From the IMG/VR virus record IMGVR_UViG_3300046749_000003, positions 1-22,011 of that record: a stretch of 22,011 nucleotides of DNA. One strand, written 5' to 3'. The notes beneath the pieces were generated by a model, which saw only the letters and a list, made by a program, of their open reading frames with translations, did not search any database and was not told the origin of the DNA. The position numbers were made by a program, and so were the translations under genes. Of the stretch, positions 6,177 to 21,418 are shown in pieces. Within the stretch, counting starts at the first letter, position 1. Each line of letters begins with the position of its first letter. Source of the DNA: a virus.

Positions 6177-8228
6177 TTATTCCTCTTTTGCAAATAATGA
6201 GCTACTTTGCGACCCAAGTAAACCAGAATACACTTCTGGTCTATTTATAAGTCTTTGAGATTTACGCTGATCTAGTATTTTTCTTTGATTTAAAGCATCA
6301 AGCATTAATCTTTGTCTAGCAGGGTTCTTTTCAGTCAATATTTTTAGCATATTACTTGAAGTTTCTTCATTTAACCCTTGGCCTCTTCTGCCTAAAGATT
6401 TTAAGATACTTGTGCCTGCTGTTTGTGGGTTGTTTAAATATTGAGAAAGTATGCTTAAACCTTCTTGTGGGTCAAATTCTGTTCCAGCCATTTCTATAGC
6501 TTTATCAGCAGTTTGCGACCCACCATAAATTTCGTTGTATGTTTTTATCTTATCAGACTCTAATTTTATAAACTTTTCAAAGTTTTTAAAATCAGCTTTA
6601 TTATCAAAAGCTAATCTCATTGCCGCACGTTTCTTTGGGCTTCCAAATATAGTCTTAGTAAAATCACTAACATCGCCAGTTTTCATTGCTAATTCTTGTA
6701 TTTGACTTACTAAACCTACGCGAAATGCTTCTTTTTCGGCAGGTAACATTTTGCTTACTTTTTTATATAAAACGTCATTTCTTAACTTTATAACATCAAT
6801 ACCTGTTTTGTAGGCAGTGTTTAATTTTTGATTATCTGCATAATTTGCGTTGGCTTTTTTGTACGCATCATTTTGCTTTGTAATTTGATTATTCCAACTA
6901 TTTTTAAGTTTTATTAAAGCTCTGCCTTTTTTACTAACTTTATCACTGCCCCCAACAACTGGTGTAATTTCTTTGTCAATTAGGCTATCTAAACCAATTT
7001 TAATTTGGTGTGCTATCTCAGTAGGCATTGTAACCTTTTCGCCTCTAGTTATTGTATCCCCAAAGAAAGCGTCTAGGTTCTTAGGCATATTTCCGACTAA
7101 GTTAACCTCTGGGTCAATTTCAGCTAAAGCAACAGCTTCCCTATAAGCTTTCTGTATTTCTTTACTTGAGGTAAGCGCGGCAAAAGGTTTTGCGTCTAGG
7201 TCAACTTTATAAGCCGCCTCGTAAAGTGGGGCAGCTTGCTTTCTAGTTTTATCAGCCAATTCATCTAAATAATCTATACCTATCTCACCTTGTATATTCA
7301 TTTTGTCAGATGTTTTGTCTGCAATATTTTCAGCCTGGCCAAGTCTTCTAGCTGAAAGGCTATCTTTTACTTGGTTTCTCATATTATTAGGTGAAGTTGC
7401 CGCTAACCAGGTTTGCTTTTGCGAAGATTGACCTAAATCAGCAATAGTCATATCATCAACACCTAATTTAGCCGCATCATCAAGTCGTTGCTTCGCTACA
7501 TCAGGCGTTATCTCATCTCTTTCAAAAGCCGCTAAAATTTTACGCTCTGCGTCGGCTAAACCGCCGCCACCGAACCTACTAGGTATTGCGCCTTTATATA
7601 TTGTTCTTAATGCTTTTGACGCTTGCTTCACGCCTACAGGAACAGCTGCGCCAAATGTACCACCTAACGCTGTACCTACCGCAGCAGACGTAGCTCTATC
7701 CTTAAAACCACCTTCACCTGTACCAAAGCCTGCAATACCACCTTCAATAGCACCAATCTTTGCGGCCCTTGCTAAAGTTGGAGCAACTCTCGCCGCCGTT
7801 GCTGAACCTACGGCAGCACCGCCAGTGCCAAATGAAAACAAGCCTGCACCCAACGCAGGCACAACAGCGCCACCAAGTTCATACCCTATAGCCTCAATAG
7901 GATTATTTGCCCTGTAAGCATCAAGTTTACCTCTAATTTCATCTAAGGACTGATCGTAACTTTTACCTTCACCACCAAACAATTGTCCGATTTTAGATAA
8001 TGCGCTTGTCCCTGCCGCTTCAATTTCATCAGAAAAACCTAAAGTCAAACCTTGTGCAATTGACCTAAGTTTCTGGCTTTCTTCTGTGCCGTCACTTTGA
8101 CTTTTAACAATACCTGCATCCATTGACCCCATAATTTCTTGCAAGGTTTGCTGTTGATCATCTTCTGACATATCTGCAAAAGAATCATCAATTTCAATTT
8201 TTCCGTATCCATCAATTTCAATTATCAT
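6177..8228 (-). CDS. Large internal virion / DNA-ejection protein
   Basis: The 683-residue protein opens with a small beta motif (IEIDGYGKIEIDDSFADMSEDDQQQTLQEI, residues 3-32) seen at the N-terminus of many phage DNA-injection proteins. A motif QGLTLGFSDEIEAA follows near 59-72. Residues about 111-200 are dominated by Gly and Ala (GGAVVPALGAGLFSFG, GGIAGFGTGEGG) and look membrane-seeking, as in proteins that leave the virion and enter the host envelope. The rest (about 220-680) is mostly charged helix, with Lys-rich stretches. It overlaps the preceding gene by 11 bases and lies two bases before the portal start. No lytic transglycosylase motif could be found, so the role is DNA transfer rather than proven wall degradation. 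Confidence 0.8.
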   Translation of the reverse strand: MIIEIDGYGKIEIDDSFADMSEDDQQQTLQEIMGSMDAGIVKSQSDGTEESQKLRSIAQGLTLGFSDEIEAAGTSALSKIGQLFGGEGKSYDQSLDEIRGKLDAYRANNPIEAIGYELGGAVVPALGAGLFSFGTGGAAVGSATAARVAPTLARAAKIGAIEGGIAGFGTGEGGFKDRATSAAVGTALGGTFGAAVPVGVKQASKALRTIYKGAIPSRFGGGGLADAERKILAAFERDEITPDVAKQRLDDAAKLGVDDMTIADLGQSSQKQTWLAATSPNNMRNQVKDSLSARRLGQAENIADKTSDKMNIQGEIGIDYLDELADKTRKQAAPLYEAAYKVDLDAKPFAALTSSKEIQKAYREAVALAEIDPEVNLVGNMPKNLDAFFGDTITRGEKVTMPTEIAHQIKIGLDSLIDKEITPVVGGSDKVSKKGRALIKLKNSWNNQITKQNDAYKKANANYADNQKLNTAYKTGIDVIKLRNDVLYKKVSKMLPAEKEAFRVGLVSQIQELAMKTGDVSDFTKTIFGSPKKRAAMRLAFDNKADFKNFEKFIKLESDKIKTYNEIYGGSQTADKAIEMAGTEFDPQEGLSILSQYLNNPQTAGTSILKSLGRRGQGLNEETSSNMLKILTEKNPARQRLMLDALNQRKILDQRKSQRLINRPEVYSGLLGSQSSSLFAKEE

Positions 8229-9324
8229 TTACACGGCTCCAGCCAATTTTTTTAGGTTTAGCATTTTCACCAGTTAGCGCTGGGTCTTCACCACTCAGAT
8301 ACACAGGCACTTCTTTGCCTTCTGATAATAATTTATTTCTTTCTAGCGCACCTGTTAAGATGTCTCTAAAATCTTTAACTGCTTGCCTGTAAGCTTGTGA
8401 CCCCATCTTAACATTTCCAAGCCTACTCAATGCAGCTTCGGCTCTATTGCCTTCGTAATCAGTAATTTGGCCACCGCTTCTTAATTGTTGTCTCGCGGCT
8501 AAGAACGCCGTTCCTGATAGCTGGTCTAACATTGCCTGTACTCTATTTGCAGGCCCAGATATATTTTTCATTAGACCTTTTCTGGGGCCTAACATCTTAT
8601 CTAAAAATGGGTCAGCCAGTAATCTATCAATGTTTTCTAATTGAGGCATTATTCCAGCAGCTGCATCATTGTATTGTTTTTTATAATCAGATAAATTTTT
8701 AGCATCAGCTTTAAGCATTGTCTCTTCAGATTTACCATTACTTAAAATAAAGTTTTCGTATCTTTGGGTGCCAGGCTCTATACCGCCAACTTTAGCTCGC
8801 TCTCTTAAACTATTGTAAGCTGCTGAAAACTCTTTATCGCCTTCAATTTTTTGCAACAACTCTGGCTCACTTAAATTTGGATACGCGGCTTTATATGCCG
8901 CGTATTTGACTGCAAAAGCACTTTTTGTAGAATTATTAGCCATACCTTTAAGTATTTTTTGACGCTCAAACGCCAATGTTGCATCAGCTTCAGCAAAGCC
9001 TCTTTCTTTCGCCTGGTTCTGCCTTTGGAACATTAAGTTTACGGCAGATGCCATTGGTACTGCGCCAGACGCAACTGCATCGGCTAAATCTTGTTGCCCA
9101 CTGTCAATAAGCATTTGAATAGTTTTATTTTTATTACCTGCGGCTACACGCCTTTCACCTGCGGCTCGTATGGAATCGCCTGCACGCATATCCTTCATAA
9201 TAAGTGGGTCAAGCGCTGCGGCAAAACTTTCTGCTCTGCTTAATCCAGTATTTTCATTAACTTGTTTAGCATAATCAAGTAAACCTCGTATGCCGCTTTT
9301 AGGTTTATTTGGATCATCAATCAT
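8218..9324 (-). CDS. Internal virion / DNA-ejection protein
   Basis: The 368-residue protein is almost all helix. It has an N-terminal GIRGLLDYAKQVNENTG stretch, a central FAVKYAAYKAAYPNLSEPEL region and a conserved-looking C-terminal motif, GQITDYEGNRAEAALSRL (residues 285-302), which resembles a recurrent motif in phage ejection proteins, usually followed by a helix such as YRQAVKDFRDIL as seen here. There is no signal peptide or membrane segment. It starts directly after the stop of the upstream gene and overlaps the downstream one. Being third in a run of four internal-virion-type genes before the portal supports the assignment. Confidence 0.78.
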   Translation of the reverse strand: MIDDPNKPKSGIRGLLDYAKQVNENTGLSRAESFAAALDPLIMKDMRAGDSIRAAGERRVAAGNKNKTIQMLIDSGQQDLADAVASGAVPMASAVNLMFQRQNQAKERGFAEADATLAFERQKILKGMANNSTKSAFAVKYAAYKAAYPNLSEPELLQKIEGDKEFSAAYNSLRERAKVGGIEPGTQRYENFILSNGKSEETMLKADAKNLSDYKKQYNDAAAGIMPQLENIDRLLADPFLDKMLGPRKGLMKNISGPANRVQAMLDQLSGTAFLAARQQLRSGGQITDYEGNRAEAALSRLGNVKMGSQAYRQAVKDFRDILTGALERNKLLSEGKEVPVYLSGEDPALTGENAKPKKIGWSRVNDN

Positions 9325-10467
9325 TTATCTGTTCCCATACATATTAGCGCCAACTTGCAAGTAATTAAACAATCCAGGCTTCATTGAGTCTGTTTGCGTG
9401 TTTTGATTAGGAGTGCTTTGCAATGCCGCAATTGGTGCAGATAGCGCGGCTAAAGGCGCTCCCTGGTAACCAGCATATTGAGCTTTAGCCGCATCAATTA
9501 ATGCTTGTTGCATACTTTGTTGCAGTAACCCGGCTTGACCTTGCTGTTGTTGTATTGCTTGGCCAGTACCAAACGCCTGATTAGCCAAATTTCCCATTTG
9601 CGCGGCGGATGCAAGGTTTTGCTGATTAGCACCTGCAAGTGCCGCTTGGTTTGCTAATTGTGCAGACATAGCTTGCGTTGCGCCAAATTGATTTGCTTGG
9701 TTTTGCGCTGCTTGGTTTGTAAGTGCCATTTGATTAGACGCGCCCGACCCAAATTGAGCCGCTTGGTTTTGCGCCGCCATATTTGCCGCCGCAGCTTGAT
9801 TTGCCGCAGACGCACCAAATTGCCCAGCCTGATTTAATGCGGCTTGGTTTGCTAGATTTGACTGTTGGCCAAATCCAGCAGTAGTTGTCCCAGCAGCTAA
9901 GTTTGCTTGTTGATTAGCCAATGCCGCCTGTTGCGCTGTGCCAATATCTTGCATAGCCATTTGTTGTGCTTGTGTATAACCTGCTTGGCGCAAACCAGAA
10001 GCAGTTCTAGCCGCCTGGTCAGCAAATGCACGATTTGTTTCAGCTTCAGCAATGCCTTGCCTAGAGCCGCCAAAAGCATTAGCGGCAGTGGCTTGTGCGC
10101 CTAATTGATTTTGAGCCATTAACCTTGAGCGCTCTAAATCTCCGAGTGCTTGATCTACAACCTGAGTTTCAAATGGATTAGTATATGCGCCTAAGTTGGT
10201 ATTCGCTAATTGACCAGCTTGCACGTTCTGGGCTGTGACTGTTGGAGATTGGCCAATGGTGGAAGCACCATAATTTGCGCTAGTCATTGCGCTTGGATTA
10301 TATCCAGTGGCCGATGCGTTTGCCGCATTATATGCAGTCGGCCTAATAGCCATCGGAGCGTAATTCATCGCCTGCTGAGTGCCTTGCATCGCCTGTTGCA
10401 ATCCACCAGCTGCCGCTTGATTTACGTTAAAACCGCCTTGCGGCTGTATTTGTCCACCACCAGCCAT
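9325..10467 (-). CDS. Gln/Ala/Asn-rich repeat ejection protein
   Basis: The 380-residue protein is very rich in Gln, Ala and Asn. A central motif YTNPFETQVVDQALGDLER (residues 95-113) followed by NQLGAQATAANAFGGSRQG (120-138) and IAEAETNRAF is characteristic of a family found with ejection proteins in marine phages. Residues 216-281 contain three 22-residue units, each starting QFG, and further loose NQAA repeats lie around 200-215 and 282-310. The composition predicts long helices, perhaps a filamentous or coiled assembly. AGAGG lies before the ATG. It is the second of four proteins of this type; I assign an internal-virion role mainly on context and on the motif. Confidence 0.72.
   Translation of the reverse strand: MAGGGQIQPQGGFNVNQAAAGGLQQAMQGTQQAMNYAPMAIRPTAYNAANASATGYNPSAMTSANYGASTIGQSPTVTAQNVQAGQLANTNLGAYTNPFETQVVDQALGDLERSRLMAQNQLGAQATAANAFGGSRQGIAEAETNRAFADQAARTASGLRQAGYTQAQQMAMQDIGTAQQAALANQQANLAAGTTTAGFGQQSNLANQAALNQAGQFGASAANQAAAANMAAQNQAAQFGSGASNQMALTNQAAQNQANQFGATQAMSAQLANQAALAGANQQNLASAAQMGNLANQAFGTGQAIQQQQGQAGLLQQSMQQALIDAAKAQYAGYQGAPLAALSAPIAALQSTPNQNTQTDSMKPGLFNYLQVGANMYGNR
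9625..9822 (-). repeat. Three tandem 22-residue units (66 bp period)
   Basis: Within the Gln/Ala-rich protein, residues 216-237, 238-259 and 260-281 each begin QFG and keep the same length of 22 residues. The first two are closest (QFGASAANQAAAANMAAQNQ versus QFGSGASNQMALTNQAAQNQ); the third has drifted. The in-frame 66-bp period indicates growth by unequal duplication rather than an independent mobile repeat. Confidence 0.8.
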
Positions 10468-10499
10468 ATTAAGCCTCTTTTCTTTTATAATTTGTCATA

Positions 10500-11783
10500 T
10501 TATTCATCAAAACCTATCATTGCCGCTTTTTTGCCAGCCGCTTTAGTAAACTGCGCCCTATTTGCATCAATTTGCCTTTGCTGGTCTCTATCATTTTTTC
10601 GCTTTTGATCTTCTTGCGCCTGTTTAAGACGTTTCGCCATTTGCGCTGTCTGCATATCAACTCCGCCTTCTGGATCAATACCGCTATACAAAGCCGCCAT
10701 TGGGTTAGATAACAATCCTGGTACACCTGTAAGATTGGACATTTGGCCACTCATCAATGACCCACCATATGACCCACCGACATTATCTGGGCGCGGCGTT
10801 CCGTCGGGCATAAGCCCACCAAAAAATCTTCCACTAGAAGGATTTGAAAAACTTGTTGGCACAATGTTTGTAATGTTCTTAACACCATCCATAAAGCCCA
10901 TGTTTGCCACACCCCTCATGTTCATAGCTAAATCTTCTTGTGCCATCCTTTGTTCTGCCGTTAAATCATTTCTTTGATCTGGCGTCATTTTATCGCCTAT
11001 TGTGTCAGTCTGAATATTATAATTTGGCTTTATTTTGTTTGATAAAGAATTAATTTCATCTGCACTTAAATTAGAGCCGTAAGTAATCATGTTTGCTCTT
11101 TGTGCATCAATTTGGCGCTGCTGATCTCTTTCTTTTCTATTATTTAATGCAAACAATTCTGCCTCACTAAGTTCTCCCTGTGAGTCTTCGGGCGATAAGT
11201 TTGGGGCAATAGGCATTGGGTATATAGGCTGTTGTAATTGTGTATCGTATCCATCTTTAAGGGGAACTGGTGTACCATAATAATCGCTATCTGCACCATA
11301 ATTAGTGGTATTTGCCATAAAACTAGGGTTTCTTCCCATCATGCTTTGAGAAACGCCACTACCAGGACTAGCAAAATATGTGTTTGATTTATCAAAACCT
11401 ATATTTGGATTAACGAAAAAACTATCCATAAGTGCTTTTTGATTTGGCCTAAAGTATCCTAATGTGTCAACCGCATCTTGGAACATTGGCGCTGATGAAT
11501 AACCAGTTACACCATTTGCATATGTTTGCGGCCTACCCATATTGCCCATTATATCTTGTGGGTCTGTCGGAGTAGCCATGCCAAATGCGTTAGCAACATC
11601 TGATGTATTTTGAAACATTGCCTGTTGCATTGGATTAAACGCTGCAACATCTGGCCCATAATATGGGGTGTAGCCAACTTCCGATATTCCAGCTGCTTTT
11701 GCTAAATTAGCTCTAGCTGCATCTTCAATATACTTTGGTACTGTTACTTCTGATGTGGTTGAACCACCTTTGCCGCCTGACAT
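10500..11783 (-). CDS. Probable virion/ejection-associated protein with repeated QRQIDA motif
   Basis: The 427-residue product starts MSGGKGGSTTSEVTVPKYIE and continues with ARANLAKAAGISEVGYTPYYGPDVAAFNPMQQAMF, a conserved-looking opening found, as far as I recall, in proteins that accompany ejection proteins in marine phages. The middle is Pro/Gly/Asn/Tyr-rich and looks disordered. A motif DQQRQIDAxRA occurs twice, at residues 220-230 and 400-410. No membrane helix is present, and a basic tail (QFTKAAGKKAAMIGFDE) ends the protein. AAGGAG precedes the start codon. It is the first of four consecutive internal-virion-like genes. The function is inferred from context; no catalytic motif is visible. 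Confidence 0.7.
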   Translation of the reverse strand: MSGGKGGSTTSEVTVPKYIEDAARANLAKAAGISEVGYTPYYGPDVAAFNPMQQAMFQNTSDVANAFGMATPTDPQDIMGNMGRPQTYANGVTGYSSAPMFQDAVDTLGYFRPNQKALMDSFFVNPNIGFDKSNTYFASPGSGVSQSMMGRNPSFMANTTNYGADSDYYGTPVPLKDGYDTQLQQPIYPMPIAPNLSPEDSQGELSEAELFALNNRKERDQQRQIDAQRANMITYGSNLSADEINSLSNKIKPNYNIQTDTIGDKMTPDQRNDLTAEQRMAQEDLAMNMRGVANMGFMDGVKNITNIVPTSFSNPSSGRFFGGLMPDGTPRPDNVGGSYGGSLMSGQMSNLTGVPGLLSNPMAALYSGIDPEGGVDMQTAQMAKRLKQAQEDQKRKNDRDQQRQIDANRAQFTKAAGKKAAMIGFDE

Positions 11784-12145
11784 TATGCAAACTCCTTAAT
11801 GTATGAGGAATGTAGTTGATCCCAACCATGTTCCGAAAGTGGTTTTTTCCATCCAGCACGACCTGTCATTGTTAATGCCGAACACCCTTGAGCCTTTGCC
11901 CAGGTAATTACGTCAGTGTGCATATCCATTATTTGATCCAATTCGCCGCCGCCGAGAAATATATTTAACTGCTTTACCTTTGGGTATACCACAATTTCAG
12001 ACACGATGCACCCCCTTGACGTAGGCCAAAGTTGCATTGTGCCTGCCTTAATGCCTTCTACTACATGAATAAAATCGTGAGTGCCGCCAGAATACTCCAA
12101 AGCGGCCTCGATCCATTCCCTGCAATTTTCAATTATTTCATCCAT
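11783..12145 (-). CDS. Small GNAT-like phage protein
   Basis: The 120-residue protein (MDEIIENCREWIEAALEYSG...) has a helix, a set of strands (VSEIVVYPKVKQLNIFLGGGEL), a helix (DQIMDMHTDVITWAKAQGC), then a strand SALTMTGRAGWKKPL and a final EHGWDQLHSSYIKEF. This order matches a reduced GNAT acetyltransferase fold, and small GNAT-like proteins occur in the late operons of podoviruses (T7 gp13 is one). The usual acetyl-CoA-binding Q/R-x-x-G-x-G/A loop is only approximated (TGRAGWKK), so activity is doubtful and it may be a structural or assembly protein. It overlaps the preceding gene by eight bases; GAGGA lies upstream. The call is a fold-level guess. Confidence 0.5.
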   Translation of the reverse strand: MDEIIENCREWIEAALEYSGGTHDFIHVVEGIKAGTMQLWPTSRGCIVSEIVVYPKVKQLNIFLGGGELDQIMDMHTDVITWAKAQGCSALTMTGRAGWKKPLSEHGWDQLHSSYIKEFA

Positions 12146-12803
12146 GTGTCCTCGTTATAGATAGTGTAGAGGCTGGTAAAGCTGGCACTGATCCAGACGC
12201 CGCAGTGTAATTTAAGAAGCCATTTATGTTATCCATCATATAATTTACTTCAAGATAATCTCCAGCCGCCAATGTAAATATTTGTGTTCGACTTGTCACC
12301 ATTGTGGCATTATTTTGGTGCATCGCAGTAGTCATAGCGCTATTTGCTACGGCGGTGCCGTTGACGCTAGGCCAAAAATAGAAGTGTACTGTGCTTGAGC
12401 TTGTCGATGATATTTGTGCAGAAAACGATATGACATATTCTCCAGCTTCCTCAAACACAATTCTGCTTGTCGGCGTGCCTTGCGTAATTCTTGAATTGCC
12501 AGATGGCGCGTCATAGGTCAGCTTGTACGCCGTATCTGCCGCAACTGGTGTAACATCTGATGTTTTAATAAAATTAGCGTGTCCACCCTCAACAACAATT
12601 TGCCGGAATTCTCCACCTTTTGACACGACAGGATATTTGTAAATCCTATTCCACATGAGGGTTGCATCATCAGATGCGTTTTCTTCGCCGTTCTGTTGAA
12701 CCAACGTAGATCGAGTTTGTGATAAATGCTGAACAAGTCTGCGACCCCACGTCCGCCAATCGTTACCGATGACGTCTGGGGCTTTCTGTGGCTGTTCGCT
12801 CAT
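12138..12803 (-). CDS. Jelly-roll (C1q-like) tail or receptor-binding protein
   Basis: The 221-residue product has a short helical N-terminal part (DWRTWGRRLVQHLSQTRSTLV, about 15-35), a linker, and a beta-rich C-terminal domain (about 95-221). There, GEYVISFSAQISSTSS, then VHFYFWPSVNGTAVANSA, and TLAAGDYLEVNYM follow the strand pattern of C1q/TNF-like jelly rolls ('G.Y.isfs.q', 'NG..vanS', 'l.aGDyle'). Such domains occur in phage tail and fibre proteins and often make surface contacts. It is linked to the P22 gp10-like gene by an ATGA overlap, so it may attach to the tail. Receptor binding is inference. Confidence 0.65.
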   Translation of the reverse strand: MSEQPQKAPDVIGNDWRTWGRRLVQHLSQTRSTLVQQNGEENASDDATLMWNRIYKYPVVSKGGEFRQIVVEGGHANFIKTSDVTPVAADTAYKLTYDAPSGNSRITQGTPTSRIVFEEAGEYVISFSAQISSTSSSTVHFYFWPSVNGTAVANSAMTTAMHQNNATMVTSRTQIFTLAAGDYLEVNYMMDNINGFLNYTAASGSVPALPASTLSITRTHG

Positions 12804-14281
12804 CTCGCTCCACCAGCCGTAACATTAAGTCTATTTATTCCGACACGCCAATCAGCTAAGTTAGCCGCGTCAATCCTGAGTTTAACTTGCCTGCCTGTAA
12901 ATCTTAATGACGTTGGGTTTGACATAGAGAACGCTCCATATGAGCGCTCTTCGCCATTCGGGTAAAACCTTGTCTTAAATGTAACTGTGACGTCGCCCTG
13001 CGTCTTTTCATCTGGGATCATTTCTGTGACTGACATTACACTCTCGCCAGTGCCTAACGCAATTGATCCACTTTCAGCAAATGGCGTAAGTGAGCCGTAA
13101 TCAAAGCCAATCTCATGCTCGTATAACTTGTTGTTTTCTGCACTTGCCCAAATTGGTTGGCGGTATGTACCCATATCAAATCCAGCAGTTCTGCCTAGTT
13201 CACCAATGTACCAAGTGTTCTCGACATAATTATAAACGCAATATCTGTCATTTTCTGTGCTTGATCCAGATGGGTAGAACCAGAATATCTCGCCGTATGT
13301 GCTGTTTGTCACTGCAAAAGTTTTTGATATTTGTGCGCGGTTTATATCAGAAAATACATAGTCTGATATTTCGCTTTCAATTTGTTGCACTGCGCCGCCT
13401 GCATAAGCATAGAATGAGTGATTACCCATCCAGAACGCGCCCTTATCAACTGATGCTATGGCCTTATTTGCTATTAATCCGCAACTCGCTCCGACACGCT
13501 CAATGCCGTAAACATATGGCGCACCAATATAATTTGCTACGTGTGCGTCCATGCTTGTTAATATTAGAGTTTGACCCTGCACACGTATGCCAGCCATAAT
13601 TCTGCCACTTGTGTTAAGCTCTAAGTCACCAGCTTCATTTGTTGCGGCTGGCGTCCATGTGGAGCTATCTTCCCTATCACACCACTGCACCTTGCGTTGG
13701 TTTCCGCCTGCACCTAGCGCAAACAAAAATCTTTCCTCGGTTACAACAATGCTTTCATTGTTTGTAGGTGCATTTGGTAATACTGCGGCTGGTGTGGAAT
13801 TGTTTATTTGCCACTCATAAATTTTGCCATCATCTTCATTACAGGCGACAAGGTATTCACCCCACGTATCTAGCGACCAAGTTGTTGCAGGCTGTATTCG
13901 CGCTGTATCTGGGCGAGCTACGCCGTAGGCATATTGACCAAAATAACTACCGCCATATCCTGTAAATGCCTCGGCGTCTTCACGGCCACTAACTAACCCT
14001 GTTGGCGTTATGTCGTGACGCACACCTTGTGAAGTCCAAGTATAAAGTTTGTTATATGTGCCGCCAGCTATAAACCTGTCTTGATTATTCCCAATCCAAG
14101 TAATTAATCCACGAATTTTAGCATTAGCCGCCGTGTCTGATCGAGTACGCCAGCCACCCATTGGACGCATCGTGCCATCGACCCATCGAATTAAGTTGGC
14201 GTCACGCCATCGACCAGATGATTGTAATTCAGTGCCGTTGCGGTAAATGCCAGCAGGGATGTCTAATGGTATTAGTGGCAT
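12800..14281 (-). CDS. P22 gp10-like tail/head-completion protein
   Basis: The 493-residue protein starts MPLIPLDIPAGIYRNGTELQ and continues with GRWRDANLIRWVDGTMRPMGGW, an opening found in structural proteins of short-tailed phages that resemble the P22 tail accessory factor gp10 ('packaged DNA stabilisation' family). Its length is close to gp10 (about 470). The remainder is rich in aromatic residues and Gly, with repeated beta motifs such as RFIAGGTYNKLYTW, and looks propeller-like. In such phages this protein joins the portal/adaptor to the tail and seals DNA in the head. An AGAGG ribosome binding site lies upstream, and a sigma-70-like promoter candidate lies about 30-60 bases before it. 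Confidence 0.75.
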   Translation of the reverse strand: MPLIPLDIPAGIYRNGTELQSSGRWRDANLIRWVDGTMRPMGGWRTRSDTAANAKIRGLITWIGNNQDRFIAGGTYNKLYTWTSQGVRHDITPTGLVSGREDAEAFTGYGGSYFGQYAYGVARPDTARIQPATTWSLDTWGEYLVACNEDDGKIYEWQINNSTPAAVLPNAPTNNESIVVTEERFLFALGAGGNQRKVQWCDREDSSTWTPAATNEAGDLELNTSGRIMAGIRVQGQTLILTSMDAHVANYIGAPYVYGIERVGASCGLIANKAIASVDKGAFWMGNHSFYAYAGGAVQQIESEISDYVFSDINRAQISKTFAVTNSTYGEIFWFYPSGSSTENDRYCVYNYVENTWYIGELGRTAGFDMGTYRQPIWASAENNKLYEHEIGFDYGSLTPFAESGSIALGTGESVMSVTEMIPDEKTQGDVTVTFKTRFYPNGEERSYGAFSMSNPTSLRFTGRQVKLRIDAANLADWRVGINRLNVTAGGAR

Positions 14282-14308
14282 ATGAACCTCTTAGCCTAAG
14301 TTATTGCG

Positions 14309-14338
14309 ACTATAGCACATTTTTACCTATATTAACAA
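14309..14338 (-). promoter_or_regulatory. Mid-operon sigma-70-like promoter with extended -10
   Basis: In the 129-bp gap 14282-14410, reading the minus strand, TTGTTA (14333-14338) is followed after 18 bases by TATAGT (14309-14314), preceded by TGC (an extended -10). The start would fall about 20-25 bases before the ATG of the gp10-like gene at 14281. Matching hexamers and spacing in an AT-rich gap are suggestive but not proof. I see nothing else clear in the gap; no convincing terminator follows the upstream gene. Confidence 0.5.
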
Positions 14339-14410
14339 TATGTGTTGCATTACATTAAGTTTCTTCATTTTCTTCAAATTTAGAAATAATTGGGGCGTGT
14401 GCATTTTTTC

Positions 14411-15262
14411 CTATTTTTTTCTTTTATGCCAGTAAAAATTTTTATAGCGATCAAAATGTTTCTTAGACATCTTATTGTAAAGTTTTGTTTTTTTGTTTTC
14501 ATCTAATACTCCTACAGAGTAGTTGTGTGGCTCTCTTTTAAAGGGTATAACGTGTATTAACGGCGTACCTTGTGGTATTATAAACTCTCCAACTTCTTTG
14601 CCTGTCCAAACATAAGGAAAATTAATATTGTTATAATACTCATCGGTATCTACCACACCTTCGATTATACATATATCATTTTCCCAATTATTAGATGGAT
14701 TTTTAAATTGCACTGAATAACCACGAGGTGTTTCTATAATCCAAGGATTTGCAAATTTAAATAATACTTTGCCAAATTTAAACTTACTTAGAGTGCAGGC
14801 CTCACCCACTTGATCCCAACCATGCCTTTCTAATATTTCATCTGCTGAATGCATATGCTCTGGGAACTGCATCATTACTGCAAGTTCATCAGTTATATTA
14901 TAAGATTGCCTTATTACCTCTAAGTTTTCTCCCTTTGTACCTATAAGGCTATCAGGGTTCATTGTAGGCTCAATTCCTGCATCTTCTCCATCTTTGCCAA
15001 AGAAAATATATACTGGATAAACTTTAACTTGTAAGTCAGCCCACAAAGGAATTATGTAACCCTGAGATACCGCATCAAGAACTGGAACGCACCTTTTGAC
15101 TGTACCAGCTTGTGTTTTTTCTTTACCATCTATTACGGGTTTTAACTTTTTAAACCATGCTGGCATAGCTTTATATGCTGGGATAGGATGAGGTATGCTG
15201 TCTAAATCTTCTTGAGATGCATGAAATTTTACTATTGTCTGTTTTTTTCTAAAAAAATTCAT
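14411..15262 (-). CDS. DUF6065-like accessory protein, function unknown
   Basis: The 283-residue protein begins MNFFRKKQTIVKFHASQED and contains IPAYKAMPAWFKKLKP, CVPVLDAVSQGYIIPLWADL (71-90 region), FKFANPWIIETPRGYSVQF and GTPLIHVIPFKREPHNY. The sequence of a 'MPaWfk.L' stretch, a Cys-led 'C.PvlDa.s.GYiiPL' strand and a terminal 'iPFkR' is what I associate with DUF6065-type proteins in cyanophages and other marine phages; this is recalled, not searched. The biochemical role is unknown. It is Lys-rich, and its codons end more often in A/T than those of the flanking tail genes, suggesting a later arrival. AGGTAAAAGC precedes the start. It lies 13 bases after a tail-assembly-type gene and is followed by a 129-bp non-coding gap. 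Confidence 0.7.
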   Translation of the reverse strand: MNFFRKKQTIVKFHASQEDLDSIPHPIPAYKAMPAWFKKLKPVIDGKEKTQAGTVKRCVPVLDAVSQGYIIPLWADLQVKVYPVYIFFGKDGEDAGIEPTMNPDSLIGTKGENLEVIRQSYNITDELAVMMQFPEHMHSADEILERHGWDQVGEACTLSKFKFGKVLFKFANPWIIETPRGYSVQFKNPSNNWENDICIIEGVVDTDEYYNNINFPYVWTGKEVGEFIIPQGTPLIHVIPFKREPHNYSVGVLDENKKTKLYNKMSKKHFDRYKNFYWHKRKK

Positions 15263-15275
15263 GCTTTTACCTAAA

Positions 15276-15692
15276 CTAACTTAGGTCTCTTGGGAACATA
15301 CTTAATCTAACAGGTCTTGAAGCATTAAGGTCATCAGGGTAATTTAACCATGCAGTTCTCCAAGCGCTTAAAGCATCCTTGTCTGACTGAGATAAACTGT
15401 CATACCATAAATTATTCATAGCGTTTAAAGTCTCTGCAAACTCTTCACGTCTGTCAACTCTACGTAAATCACTTTCTGATATTTCGTGTTGGTCGTTTGC
15501 TGGAGGAGCATATGCCGAAACAACATTACCAGCATCGAGCCATGCTTGTAGGATAGCATCATTCGCCGCATCCCTTGCTCCAGAATTAAATATCTTAGTA
15601 TCAGTAGCAATATTGCCGCAGTCTACTTGGAATATAGCTACGCCATCTGAATCGTATTGTGCGCTTTTTACATTTGTTATTTGTAGAGTCAT
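15276..15692 (-). CDS. Small tail-fibre-associated / tail assembly chaperone-like protein
   Basis: The 138-residue product has a beta-like N-terminus (MTLQITNVKSAQYDSDGVAIF) and a helical C-terminal half (REEFAETLNAMNNLWYDSLSQ, then DALSAWRTAWLNYPDDLNAS). The pattern of 'W...L...d...l..WR..w..yP' at the C-terminus resembles small tail-assembly or fibre-chaperone proteins (Phage_tail_APC-like), which usually follow the fibre gene, as here. The identity is weak because motif matches are short. It lies one base after the fibre gene stop; AGGGA, just upstream, sits inside the end of the fibre gene. Confidence 0.55.
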   Translation of the reverse strand: MTLQITNVKSAQYDSDGVAIFQVDCGNIATDTKIFNSGARDAANDAILQAWLDAGNVVSAYAPPANDQHEISESDLRRVDRREEFAETLNAMNNLWYDSLSQSDKDALSAWRTAWLNYPDDLNASRPVRLSMFPRDLS

Positions 15693-15693
15693 A

Positions 15694-17058
15694 TTATATA
15701 TCCCTATATTTAATTGACATATTGTGTCCCATCCAAAAGTTATTACCTTGAGAGGTTGTTTTAATAGTTATGTTTCCATCTGAAGGAACCCAAGCAGTAA
15801 CACCTATATTTCCACCTATACTTGCGCCTTGGCCAACAGTTTCACCTGATTTAATTGATTTTGCGTTAATACCTGTATTAGAACCAACTGCATGAACGAA
15901 AGCCCAACCGCCTGAACCATTTACTCCCACCTCACCAGAGCCGCCAAGGTTGTTACCATTACCTGATGTAACAGATGTTGCTAAAATCCATCGCCCATTT
16001 GTACCGCCACTAAAGGATTGTAAGTTACCAGAGTTTGATGAGAGGTTAGCATTAGACCAGTTGTTACTGTCGAATAAAACACTTGAGCCGCCAGCAGGGT
16101 CTGTCCAAACAGCAGTACCAGAAGATGAATACCCAAGAATTTGACCAGATGCACCACCTGATGGGATGTGCTTATTCCCTGCTGATGTAGGGTGAGATAT
16201 TGTAACTGTACCAGAAGTACCGCCACCTGATAAGCCAGTGCCAGCAGTAACACCTTGAATATCACCAGTTGCACCAGTTGTAATTGCAGTAACGTGGCCC
16301 CGCCCATCTACTGTTATTTGATCAATCTTTGTGCCATCAGATGTACTACCATATGTGCCACTAAGTGCGGATGTATCGCTATGGTTAAATGTTGTACCAG
16401 ACAAACTAAGATCAGTGCCAGCACTGTAGGTTGTGTTAGTGTCTGTGTTTACAACTGTTTCTGTAGCTGTAGCTAAACCAGTGACATGTCCATAGGTATC
16501 AAGAGTAATATCTTGAATATATGTTCTGCCAGAGTTATTTGATGAGCCTTGAGATGACGTATCGCTGTGGCTTAAAGTTACATTACCAGTACCGCCACCA
16601 GATAACCCAGAACCAGCAGTAATAGTCTGGTCAGCAGTCGCTGATGCTTCAATGCCATTTAACTTAGAATGATCTGCATCTGTAAATACATTACTATTAC
16701 TAGCCGCTTCAACTGCCGCACGTATTTCTGCATTTGTTTGATCTGCTGTTGCGCCACTTTCTATTCCATCTAACTTAGTGCCATCCGCCGCAACATCACG
16801 TCCATCAACTGTACCGCCAACTGTAATATTACCAGTTGCGCTTACTGTAGTAGCCGCAACAGTTGACGCAGAGTTTGCACCAATTGGAGTTCCATCGATT
16901 GATCCAGAATTAATATCAATACCAGTGACAGGCGTCGTACCATCTAACAAATTATCGACGTTATCCAAATTGGTATTTATCTTTGTACCCCAAGTGTCCT
17001 CAGATGCACCGACTTCTGGCTTCACCAGACCATATGTGGTTGTTGTAGTATCTGCCAT
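15694..17058 (-). CDS. Tail fibre protein
   Basis: The 454-residue protein starts with the widespread fibre attachment motif [20 protein letters not shown] (9-28), followed by a helix [13 protein letters not shown]. The shaft shows repeats such as [16 protein letters not shown] (93-108) and [15 protein letters not shown] (131-145), and motifs [11 protein letters not shown] and [11 protein letters not shown] (186-195 and 249-259), typical of phage fibre collagen-like or triple-beta shafts. The C-terminal 120 residues are Gly/Asn/Ser-rich and beta-predicted, a likely receptor-binding head. AGGAGTTAATT precedes the ATG. The following gene is a possible fibre chaperone. Host recognition is the expected role but the target cannot be read from the sequence. 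Confidence 0.85.
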
Positions 17059-17086
17059 AATTAACTCCTATGTTTGGCCTTGCGGC

Positions 17087-17170
17087 CTAATATCGTTCAT
17101 CAATGTAAGAGAAAGACGCAGTAGGCGCTAATCGCATACTGCCACAAAAATGCTTAAATTGCAACATCAT
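17087..17170 (-). CDS. Possible 27-residue small protein (ATGA-coupled)
   Basis: Between the repeat protein and the tail fibre there is a 27-codon open frame, MMLQFKHFCGSMRLAPTASF... ending SYIDERY. Its ATG overlaps the TGA of the upstream gene (ATGA), the same coupling found at several joints of this operon. No good Shine-Dalgarno lies upstream, so re-initiation would be needed. The rest of the 108-bp gap otherwise has no gene. It could be chance, since it is short. Confidence 0.4.
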   Translation of the reverse strand: MMLQFKHFCGSMRLAPTASFSYIDERY

Positions 17171-19799: not shown

Positions 19800-19835
19800 G
19801 TTTTGACCTTTTTTGCTATATTTTTTTACACGTTA

Positions 19836-20024
19836 TCACAATTCGTGCGCTTTATCCAGAACCATACGCATTCTATCCGACAATTTCCATTTGCCAGAGC
19901 GCCATTTGGCGGCATATTGTGCATCTTCTAGCGATAAACCTTTAGTAACGTAGTATTTTATCCATTTTGCCATTACTAAATTTTTCATTTTTGGCGATAA
20001 ATGATTAAATTCAGACTTTTTCAT
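19836..20024 (-). CDS. Small basic protein after large terminase
   Basis: I take the start at 20024 (MKKSEFNHLSPKMKNLVMAK), giving 62 residues; an upstream ATG at 20117 would extend the protein through the terminase gene and looks like read-through. At 20024 the ATG overlaps the terminase TGA (ATGA), and AAGGA lies upstream. The protein is Lys/Arg-rich, helical and amphipathic, with KYYVTKGLSLEDAQYAAKW and a terminal RMRMVLDKAHEL. It may bind DNA or assist packaging, but no known domain is visible. Confidence 0.7.
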   Translation of the reverse strand: MKKSEFNHLSPKMKNLVMAKWIKYYVTKGLSLEDAQYAAKWRSGKWKLSDRMRMVLDKAHEL

Positions 20025-21418
20025 GCAATTCCTTTTAAATTTCGTCTTATTGGCCTTTTCCAAGTAGAAATTGATCCCGATAATGCCGTAGCAGCGTCTG
20101 AAGCCATAGTTAAACATAAAGCGTCGGCTAAATCGGGCGATTTTAAGCCTCTTTTTCGCATTTCATCCTTACTTTCTGCCTTCATTTTACCAGATGATGT
20201 AAAAGAATACCGAATTGCAGTTAATTCCGCCAATAATTGATCGTCTTTGGGCAGTTTGCATGACCTATCTTCTAGCCAACCCTTTGCCTTAAACCATAAT
20301 TCGCTTCGTAAATTCATATATGTATGCCCCATAGCAGGCGCTTCACTTACATTAACGCCGCGCACTGGAGCGCCTAATTCACGTAATCTATCAACAACAC
20401 CACCGCCAACACCAATGCTATCGACAAGTATCTCACTAGGGCGCACACTTGGCGATAAACTTTCGTATTCTGCCATAACACGGCCAACAGTTTGCATAAG
20501 ATCAAGCCCTTGCCAGGCGCGTATTTCCGTAACAACATTGCCGTATCTTTTGCATAATGCAGTCTTATCCGTACCAAACCGCGCAACATCTAAGCCCCAA
20601 ATAGGCTTTATATCAGGCGTAATCTCAATATCTCTATGTATTGCGCTCTCTGCTATATGAAATGGTATTATCGTATCATCATCAGCTAACGGAAACTCAC
20701 CTAATACACGAATACGGAAGGCATTGCTGTCTTCGCCGTATCTTTCACGCATTTCGTCAACAAACTCATCTGAAACAAGTGGACTATCCACGCATGACCA
20801 TCGCCGCGTCCACCAGGACTTTGACATACGTGTTTGGCTTTCGTAAAATGTACCTGATGATCGTGTAGGGTTGGATAGCAAAATAGTCGTTGCACTGTGA
20901 CCAGACATTGACCCTGCCGCAGCTTCAAACACTTTCTCTGGCACACCCGACGCTTCATCTACAACTAACAAAACATTTTCTGAGTGCACACCAGCTAGGG
21001 CTTCTGGCGTTTCAGCGCGAGAAGTTCTAGCGGAGATAAACGCTTCAGACGCTGCCGACGATAATTCAACGCGATCTGACTTTACAATCAACAATTGATG
21101 TAAATGTGGCGGTAATTCATTTACCCAACGCTTGAGCTCGGCAAACAAAGCATCAAATAACTGGCTAGAAGTTGGCGCAGTTACAACAACTTTATTTGGA
21201 AATCTTAATAAAACGTACCATAGCATTGCCCAGGATGCGGATGTTGACTTGCCTGTACCATGTCCAGAACGCACAGACATTTTACGCTCACCATTAGCAA
21301 TCGCATCAAGAAACTCTGCCTGGTAATCGTATGGCGTAGCTCCAAGCACCTCTTTAACAAACAATACAGGGTTATCCCGGTACCGCATTACAAACTCTGT
21401 CAAGGGATTATCACTCAT
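20021..21418 (-). CDS. Terminase large subunit
   Basis: The 465-residue motor protein pumps DNA into the prohead and cuts it. The ATPase half shows a Walker A motif RSGHGTGKS (50-58), an adenine-binding-like opening TPYDYQAEFL (28-37), VVTAPTSSQ (78-86), a Walker B motif LLVVDEAS (150-157) and a coupling-type ILLSNPTRSSGTF (179-191). The nuclease half shows GLDVARFGTDKTAL (275-288, with catalytic D277), LVDSIGVGGGVVDRL (331-345, D333) and SPDLADALCL (427-436, D429/D432), the RNase H-like acidic set. Length is typical. The start overlaps the small-terminase stop by eight bases. Confidence 0.95.
   Translation of the reverse strand: MSDNPLTEFVMRYRDNPVLFVKEVLGATPYDYQAEFLDAIANGERKMSVRSGHGTGKSTSASWAMLWYVLLRFPNKVVVTAPTSSQLFDALFAELKRWVNELPPHLHQLLIVKSDRVELSSAASEAFISARTSRAETPEALAGVHSENVLLVVDEASGVPEKVFEAAAGSMSGHSATTILLSNPTRSSGTFYESQTRMSKSWWTRRWSCVDSPLVSDEFVDEMRERYGEDSNAFRIRVLGEFPLADDDTIIPFHIAESAIHRDIEITPDIKPIWGLDVARFGTDKTALCKRYGNVVTEIRAWQGLDLMQTVGRVMAEYESLSPSVRPSEILVDSIGVGGGVVDRLRELGAPVRGVNVSEAPAMGHTYMNLRSELWFKAKGWLEDRSCKLPKDDQLLAELTAIRYSFTSSGKMKAESKDEMRKRGLKSPDLADALCLTMASDAATALSGSISTWKRPIRRNLKGIA

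What the first reader, a model, noticed from the sequence alone, without database searches (positions are those of the whole stretch)
14411..15262. AT-rich DUF6065-like insert in the tail module
A protein resembling the uncharacterised DUF6065 family sits between a fibre-assembly-type gene and the gp10-like tail gene. Its Lys-rich, AT-ending codon use differs from neighbours, and it is followed by the longest non-coding gap between genes in the window. This looks like an acquired accessory gene rather than a core virion gene; its effect on host or virion is unknown.
Basis: partly seen in the sequence, partly recalled or inferred. Interest (0 to 1): 0.5.

Follow-up and report, generated by a model that had tools for sequence, protein, structure and literature searches.

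The report
Swappable helper gene beside phage fibre
A marine virus of bacteria carries an exchangeable gene next to its host-recognition fibre; the encoded protein is predicted to fold like the enzyme dUTPase, and its relatives in other phages often sit near collagen-like fibres and hydroxylating enzymes, which suggests, but does not prove, that it helps to process the fibre.

Summary
The gene is real (14411-15262, minus strand, 283 aa). It passes the Pfam cut-off for DUF6065 and matches phrog_7084 over nearly its full length. "Acquired accessory gene" is supported: of 57 related loci with the complete slot (next gene 73-99% identical), only 3 hold a homologue, 34-51% identical although their next gene is 97% identical. 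The stated reasons mostly fail. Synonymous codon use is ordinary (z +1.6); the low GC (0.339) follows amino-acid content. The downstream gap holds the scar of a small gene intact in two relatives, plus a promoter-like block conserved before the next gene.

New: the AlphaFold model (pLDDT 85) has a dUTPase-like fold with motif III aspartates but no motif V, so it is probably not an ordinary dUTPase. Phage homologues often lie in tail-fibre cassettes: two genes after collagen-like fibres, beside 2OG-Fe(II) oxygenases (21 of 50 contigs; 17 of these within 1.2 kb, 4.9 expected), sometimes beside PLOD-type or GT61 glycosyltransferases, after halogenases in three cyanophages. In near-identical phages the slot instead held a tryptophan halogenase (one) or a 2OG oxygenase-like gene (one).

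Best reading: an exchangeable fibre-processing factor. Its chemistry is unknown; nothing is shown by experiment.

The parts
14411..15262 (-). DUF6065/phrog_7084 protein P0001, 283 aa, predicted dUTPase-like fold
15276..15692 (-). small protein P0002 (138 aa), probably a fibre assembly helper (inferred from position; no Pfam or PHROG hit at E 0.1); similar stretches in 9 of 80 DUF6065 loci, upstream of the gene in 8 and downstream in 1 (L011)
   Evidence: fold prediction unusable
15694..17058 (-). tail fibre protein P0003 (454 aa); in 56 fibres chosen for sharing its first 9 residues, identity averages 95% over residues 1-50, 67% over 51-100 and 20-28% in the blocks from residue 251 on
12800..14281 (-). 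P0004, tail/neck virion structural protein (phrog_3287), right border of the variable slot
14355..14402 (-). scar: last ~15 codons of a small gene (78 aa, intact in L112 at 7691-7927 and in L114)
14286..14341 (-). conserved block before P0004 with an extended -10 promoter-like site (14338-14309, TTGTTA-18-TATAGT preceded by TG); TGNTATAGT is within 85 nt before P0004 in 50 of 50 relatives with P0004 over 93% identical
17059..17166 (-). conserved non-coding leader before the fibre gene, left border of the slot
   Evidence: 34 sequences, window included

Best explanation
An exchangeable helper gene of the tail-fibre cassette. Shown: the fibre's anchor end and the tail gene beyond are kept, while the fibre tip and the helper genes between them differ among near-identical phages; DUF6065 is one rare cargo, and a halogenase or an oxygenase-like gene are others. 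Shown by prediction: the protein has a dUTPase-like beta fold with motif III/IV-like residues, a set invariant in the 67 aligned proteins (K56, C58, H147, Q151, S183 among them) and no motif V. Inferred: it acts in the infected cell on the newly made fibre, probably as a trimer as dUTPases are, binding or chemically processing the trimeric fibre together with, or in place of, hydroxylases, glycosyltransferases or halogenases, and so tunes fibre stability or receptor binding.
For: Slot turnover. Trp_halogenase (E 4.2e-28) in the slot of L130 and 2OG-FeII_Oxy_3 (E 2.7e-4, below the family cut-off) in that of L128, among 10 slot proteins scanned. Fold. DUF6065-bearing viral contigs with PF13640: 21 of 50, against 0 of 50 contigs of P0004 relatives (3 of these carry DUF6065 themselves). 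Nearest 2OG gene within 1.2 kb in 17 of 21, 4.9 expected, 0 of 5000 simulations as high; the 17 fall in 10 of 26 clusters at 60% identity. Collagen-like gene (8 or more GXY repeats) at gene -2 in 16 of 79 loci. Neighbour Pfam tallies: upstream 2OG-FeII_Oxy_3 11 and Collagen 9 of 94 proteins; downstream 2OG-FeII_Oxy_3 8, GT61 4, GT_PLOD 2, GT25 2 of 88. Cyanophages: the gene directly follows tryptophan halogenase genes in Syn9, P-TIM40 and S-CREM1, with annotated 2OG oxygenases downstream in Syn9 and S-CREM1 and a collagen-like gene upstream in S-CREM1. Haloviruses: the gene lies at the tail-fibre end of the structural module, genes labelled adhesin or tail fibre being a few genes away in 5 of 8 regions inspected; that adhesin is reported as the host-range determinant (PMC8651126, passages).
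Against: The window holds no 2OG oxygenase hit, nor do the contigs of the three slot relatives with DUF6065 (L110, L112, L114). The window's fibre is not collagen-like by the 8-repeat measure (longest GXY run 5). 29 of 50 DUF6065 contigs show no 2OG hit (many are short fragments) and 0 of 50 a halogenase. In the 8 haloviral regions the gene is on the opposite strand to the fibre genes and borders DNA-metabolism genes. In cyanophages S-RIM4 and Sf-CH8 it lies among metabolic and unknown genes. The cyanophage matches are weak (E 1e-10 to 6e-4). Bacterial DUF6065 genes showed no fibre-like or oxygenase-rich surroundings, though that survey is flawed. I know of no enzyme activity, trimer or virion data.
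Confidence: 0.45

Rival explanations
1. Fibre chaperone or trimeric structural part (cap, adaptor) rather than a modifying factor: it binds the fibre trimer during folding or stays in the virion.
For: Position after fibre and small helper gene, where fibre chaperones lie; dUTPases are trimers (recalled); a second copy of the family nearby in 11 of 52 clusters at 90% identity.
Against: A set of polar residues invariant in 67 of 67 (K56, C58, H147, Q151, S183) suits an active or ligand site; company of oxygenases and glycosyltransferases; homologues also in bacterial chromosomes.
Confidence: 0.25
2. A nucleotide-metabolism gene: a divergent dUTPase-like hydrolase that helps phage DNA synthesis.
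For: dUTPase-like fold; D205 (60 of 67, E in 7) and D207 (66 of 67) of the motif III-like stretch kept; S-CREM1 homologue annotated triphosphate nucleotidohydrolase; near ribonucleotide reductase or thymidylate synthase genes in haloviruses and S-RIM4.
Against: Motif V in 0 of 67; bacterial members mostly have E at the motif III aspartate (20 of 28 hits, D in 2, pattern not found in 6) and show no profile link to dUTPases (P 0.14); HF2 has a separate gene of the PF00692 (dUTPase/dCTP deaminase) type, one of 3 such records among the 32 searched; location in fibre cassettes.
Confidence: 0.12
3. Part of a pathway that makes a halogenated or hydroxylated small molecule, or decorates host surface sugars, as proposed for jumbo-cyanophage clusters.
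For: Iyer et al. 2021 (PMC7824862, passages read) read clusters with halogenase and 2OG enzymes that way.
Against: In this phage family the slot holds one to a few small genes, not pathways; linkage to fibres and collagen repeats in other phages.
Confidence: 0.13
4. Neutral passenger (moron) carried along when fibre cassettes recombine, with no function in fibre biology.
For: Rare in the slot (3 of 57) and divergent.
Against: Intact ORF with residues invariant across 67 proteins; repeated association with fibre-type neighbours in several lineages.
Confidence: 0.05

Closest known systems
Pfam DUF6065 (PF19541)
   Same: Score over the curated cut-off; profile-profile match to 13 motif-checked bacterial members over residues 52-264, probability 98.1, P 6.4e-14
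   Different: Bacterial hits mostly have GxxETD where the phage family mostly has GVVDTD
phrog_7084 / Hafunaviridae gene (HSTV-2 gp40, HF2 HrrHF2_475)
   Same: Homologous over 69-98% of P0001, 24-34% identical, in 49 records, all of haloarchaeal viruses; near tail-fibre genes in the 8 regions viewed
   Different: Opposite strand to the fibre genes; there the gene looks widespread in the family (relatives without it were not counted), here it is rare
dUTPase (PF00692)
   Same: Predicted fold: Foldseek E 3.9e-4 (TM 0.36 by query, 0.67 by target); VIA Z 9.3, 3.5 A over 121 residues (3h6x_B), and Z 9.2, 2.4 A over 106 (2xx6_B); the 50 rows listed are dUTPase entries; motif III/IV-like positions align
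   Different: No motif V; a long insertion; sequence-profile link weak (P 0.0027, probability 11)
Cyanophage halogenase/2OG clusters (Syn9, P-TIM40, S-CREM1)
   Same: A weakly similar DUF6065-like gene directly follows tryptophan halogenase genes, with 2OG oxygenases downstream in Syn9 and S-CREM1
   Different: T4-like myoviruses (recalled); no 2OG oxygenase hit in the window and no halogenase among the window proteins scanned

Membership tests
DUF6065 (PF19541) | score above the Pfam gathering threshold | tested here: met
   31.6 against 26.6 bits
DUF6065 (PF19541) | similarity over the family's core, not one short stretch | tested here: met
   hhalign of A2 with 13 bacterial members, residues 52-264, P 6.4e-14 (an earlier run with 16 rows, 3 of them wrong-frame ORFs, gave 7.9e-13)
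phrog_7084 | full-length profile match | tested here: met
   2.2e-47, residues 9-279, profile 3-238 of 240
dUTPase | dUTPase fold | tested here: met
   predicted model only
dUTPase | Pfam dUTPase sequence match | tested here: not met
   P0001 has only DUF6065 at E up to 0.1
dUTPase | motif III aspartate (recalled motif) | tested here: met
   D205 60 D and 7 E of 67; D207 66 of 67
dUTPase | C-terminal motif V (glycine-rich arm, recalled motif) | tested here: not met
   0 of 67 by pattern
dUTPase | homotrimer and dUTP hydrolysis | not testable with these tools
   needs protein
tail-fibre modification cassette (working name) | gene swapped with the fibre tip between kept borders | tested here: met
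tail-fibre modification cassette (working name) | a modifying enzyme beside it in this phage | tested here: not met
   no 2OG oxygenase hit in the window, a 22-kb record that may be a fragment; such enzymes only in relatives and alternative cargo
tail-fibre modification cassette (working name) | chemical modification of the fibre | not testable with these tools
   mass spectrometry needed

The most novel reading that the evidence does not exclude
Marine tailed phages carry an exchangeable toolkit for post-translational processing of their own tail fibres (hydroxylation, hydroxylysine-type glycosylation, halogenation), parallel to collagen maturation in animals and giant viruses, and a repurposed dUTPase-fold family (phage DUF6065) is one of its parts.
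Probability: 0.3. Interest if true: 0.8.

Novelty: new variant of a known kind. Interest (0 to 1): 0.5.

Why it matters
It gives an uncharacterised family found in bacteria, archaeal viruses and phages a predicted fold and a testable context. Cyanophage 2OG oxygenases and halogenases have been read as metabolic, regulatory or antibiotic-related genes (PMC3037559, PMC2984593, PMC7824862; passages seen); the link to fibre genes offers another possible substrate: the virion's own fibre. If true, host range would depend on fibre chemistry as well as fibre sequence.

Tried and rejected
Codon-usage evidence for recent transfer: tested and rejected. P0001 alone as a query in viral contigs: no relatives; alignment A1 worked. 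PDB by sequence: the single-protein search gave three weak hits, best a Cmr5 chain at E 0.001, taken as chance; profile A2 gave one ABC-transporter chain at E 0.96; no dUTPase by sequence. Halogenase co-occurrence in DUF6065 contigs: 0 of 50. NCBIfam: no hit for P0001 and nothing informative for the other 9 proteins. Fold of P0002 from the single sequence: pLDDT 39, unusable; it should have been run with an alignment. A second control set by a fibre chaperone gave only 6 loci and was not used.

Bacterial neighbours gave no signal, but the survey is flawed: my ORF caller took a wrong frame for, or missed, the DUF6065 gene in about 10 of the 24 loci used (seen) and may have done so for neighbours. 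It counts as inconclusive. 87 of 96 listed proteins were scanned.

Literature: DUF6065 in 0 papers; 'dUTPase fold' with phage and tail, 0. Searches on phage fibre hydroxylation, collagen or halogenase show no title or abstract start on such a fibre cassette among the rows listed (1 of 1, 7 of 7, 20 of 64, 15 of 36, 12 of 215 and 2 of 2 papers). Passages only were seen of PMC3037559, PMC7824862, PMC7029224, PMC8651126, PMC10452541, PMC12774648 and PMC2984593; no paper was read whole, and most subscription journals are not held. So novelty is not established.

Weak points: the 2OG control contigs are close relatives of one another, 3 of the 50 carry DUF6065, and the fast search missed the weak L128 hit. 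I gave 50 of 80 DUF6065 loci to the family searches (duplicates, haloviral and some short ones dropped). For the neighbour tallies I used 57 of 64 distinct loci (7 haloviral or halovirus-like dropped), same-strand genes of 60-700 aa only. The 80 loci are the best of 162 and 227 relatives. The 56 fibres were chosen for sharing the first 9 residues. Of the slot proteins only 10 representatives were scanned with Pfam.

Full report
What is there. The minus-strand ORF 14411-15262 encodes 283 aa. It passes the Pfam cut-off for DUF6065 (31.6 against 26.6 bits) and matches phrog_7084 over residues 9-279. The window is a 22,011-base IMG/VR virus record with portal, scaffold, major head, terminase and tail-type genes. 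The nearest named relative by P0004 is Octadecabacter Antarctic DB virus 2, 57% identical, so a marine bacterial host of that kind is likely (inference). That virus has spike and fibre genes before P0004, and P0001 matched only haloarchaeal viruses among named phages.

GC is the lowest of 25 genes (0.339), but synonymous codon use is not unusual (z +1.6; range -4.2 to +3.5) and GC3 equals the fibre gene's. Homologues in the same slot of two relatives are also AT-rich (0.301 in L112, 0.353 in L110), so this looks like an amino-acid trait of the family. The 129-nt gap holds two things: the last ~15 codons of a small gene that is intact between DUF6065 and P0004 in L112 and L114, and a block with an extended -10-like site. 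The pattern TGNTATAGT lies within 85 nt before P0004 in 50 of 50 relatives with P0004 over 93% identical; a slightly looser pattern is found in 13 of 28 more distant ones. The promoter scan as a whole is not above chance (11 found, 10.1 expected), so the conservation is the evidence.

The slot. Relatives were taken by P0004 (227 found, the best 80 kept, 73-99% identical). Of these, 57 show the whole interval from fibre start to P0004, 37 of them with P0004 at least 93.5% identical. A profile finds a DUF6065-like gene in 3 of 80 (L110, L112, L114), all within the 57; they are 34%, 51% and 51% identical to P0001 although P0004 is 97% identical. In 56 fibres that share the first 9 residues, identity to the window's fibre averages 95% over residues 1-50 and 20-28% in the blocks from residue 251 on. 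Other cargo includes further fibre-like proteins, a tail assembly chaperone family (PF16778), a tryptophan halogenase (L130; E 4.2e-28) and a 2OG-Fe(II) oxygenase-like gene (L128; E 2.7e-4, under the family cut-off) (10 representatives scanned). So this is a recombining fibre cassette, and DUF6065 is optional cargo.

The family elsewhere. Among named phages P0001 finds only haloarchaeal viruses (49 records). In the 8 regions inspected the gene lies between DNA-metabolism genes and the fibre end of the structural module, on the other strand, with genes labelled adhesin or tail fibre a few genes away in 5 of 8; the adhesin lies in a hypervariable region that sets host range (PMC8651126, passages). 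A more central query adds 9 cyanophage records with weak matches (E 1e-10 to 6e-4). In Syn9, P-TIM40 and S-CREM1 the gene directly follows one or two tryptophan halogenase genes, with 2OG oxygenases beyond in Syn9 and S-CREM1 and a collagen-like gene before them in S-CREM1. In S-RIM4 and Sf-CH8 it lies among metabolic and unknown genes.

Viral contigs gave 162 relatives, 80 kept. Around 57 distinct loci, 2OG-FeII_Oxy_3 (11 of 94 proteins) and Collagen (9) are the commonest upstream families, and 2OG-FeII_Oxy_3 (8 of 88), 2OG-FeII_Oxy_5 (7), tail chaperone (4) and GT61 (4) the commonest downstream; L037 carries a PLOD glycosyltransferase plus 2OG domain protein, and L034 a near-equivalent (2 GT_PLOD members; 2OG hit in a frame of the same size). 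PF13640 occurs in 21 of 50 such contigs against 0 of 50 contigs of P0004 relatives, 3 of which carry DUF6065. In 17 of the 21 it is within 1.2 kb of the DUF6065 gene, where random placement gives 4.9; the 17 fall in 10 of 26 clusters at 60% identity. Collagen-like genes with 8 or more GXY repeats lie within three genes in 20 of 79 loci, at gene -2 in 16; with one at -3 (L047) these make 8 of the 26 clusters. An order of larger gene, small gene, DUF6065 is seen in 29 of 75 (by length and strand only). Stretches similar to P0002 occur in 9 of 80 loci, upstream of the gene in 8. A halogenase was found in 0 of 50.

Second copies. 19 further ORFs in the 80 loci match the family profile next to or near the first copy, in 11 of 52 clusters at 90% identity, so some phages have two paralogues.

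Fold and mechanism. With 67 aligned sequences AlphaFold gives pLDDT 84.6 and pTM 0.80. Foldseek's best PDB matches are dUTPases (E 3.9e-4; 3 chains at E 0.001 or better), and the 50 VIA rows listed are dUTPase entries (Z up to 9.3; 2.4-7.1 A over 106-146 residues). This is above, but not far above, the best Z of 7-8 that the tool calls typical without a clear match. In the viral library uncharacterised phage proteins come first, then dUTP diphosphatases. Profile comparison places GVVDTD on motif III and GTPLIHV on motif IV, weakly (P 0.0027, probability 11); for bacterial DUF6065 against dUTPases there is no signal (P 0.14). Motif V is missing in 67 of 67; since that arm is needed for dUTP hydrolysis (recalled), an ordinary dUTPase is unlikely. 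Invariant in 67 of 67: F13, P26, K56, C58, P60, G68, H147, Q151, S183, P234, P240. Bacterial DUF6065 is homologous over the core (13 members, P 6.4e-14). The Pfam family has a match in 37 of 289 genomes of the class of an Oceanicaulis MAG (Alphaproteobacteria by inference; 34 over the cut-off). My look at its bacterial neighbours is inconclusive.

Verdict. Shown: identity, accessory status, cassette structure. Predicted: fold. Inferred: action on the fibre. I put 0.45 on a fibre-processing factor and 0.25 on a chaperone or structural trimer. The fibre-modification toolkit as a whole is the bold reading (0.3). The recount changed details but not these odds.

Noticed in passing
L130:1424-2674: Tryptophan halogenase (PF04820, E 4.2e-28) directly before P0004 in a phage whose P0004 is 96% identical to the window's.
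   Followed up: partly
L128:2226-2999: A small protein with clustered cysteines (weak DUF6171 hit) and a 2OG-Fe(II) oxygenase-like protein in the same slot.
   Followed up: partly
L037:7274-9028 (and L034:5243-6997): PLOD-type glycosyltransferase joined to a 2OG-Fe(II) oxygenase domain, after a collagen-like fibre and a DUF6065-like gene: resembles an animal collagen-lysine modification set.
   Followed up: partly
L043:936-2419, also L044, L045, L048, L049, L062, L068, L076: Two divergent DUF6065-like genes in tandem directly after a 2OG oxygenase gene.
   Followed up: partly
window 14355-14402: Scar of a small gene left between DUF6065 and P0004.
   Followed up: yes
window 17059-17166: Strongly conserved non-coding leader before the fibre gene (34 sequences, window included); role unknown.
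   Followed up: no
L175 (S-CREM1) 7852-13342: Eight genes annotated 2OG oxygenase and one annotated JmjC in a row, after a collagen-like protein, a halogenase and the DUF6065-like gene.
   Followed up: no
window 19800-20020: A 221-nt stretch with a possible 93-aa ORF (19836-20117) that overlaps the terminase gene; unclear whether it is a gene.
   Followed up: no
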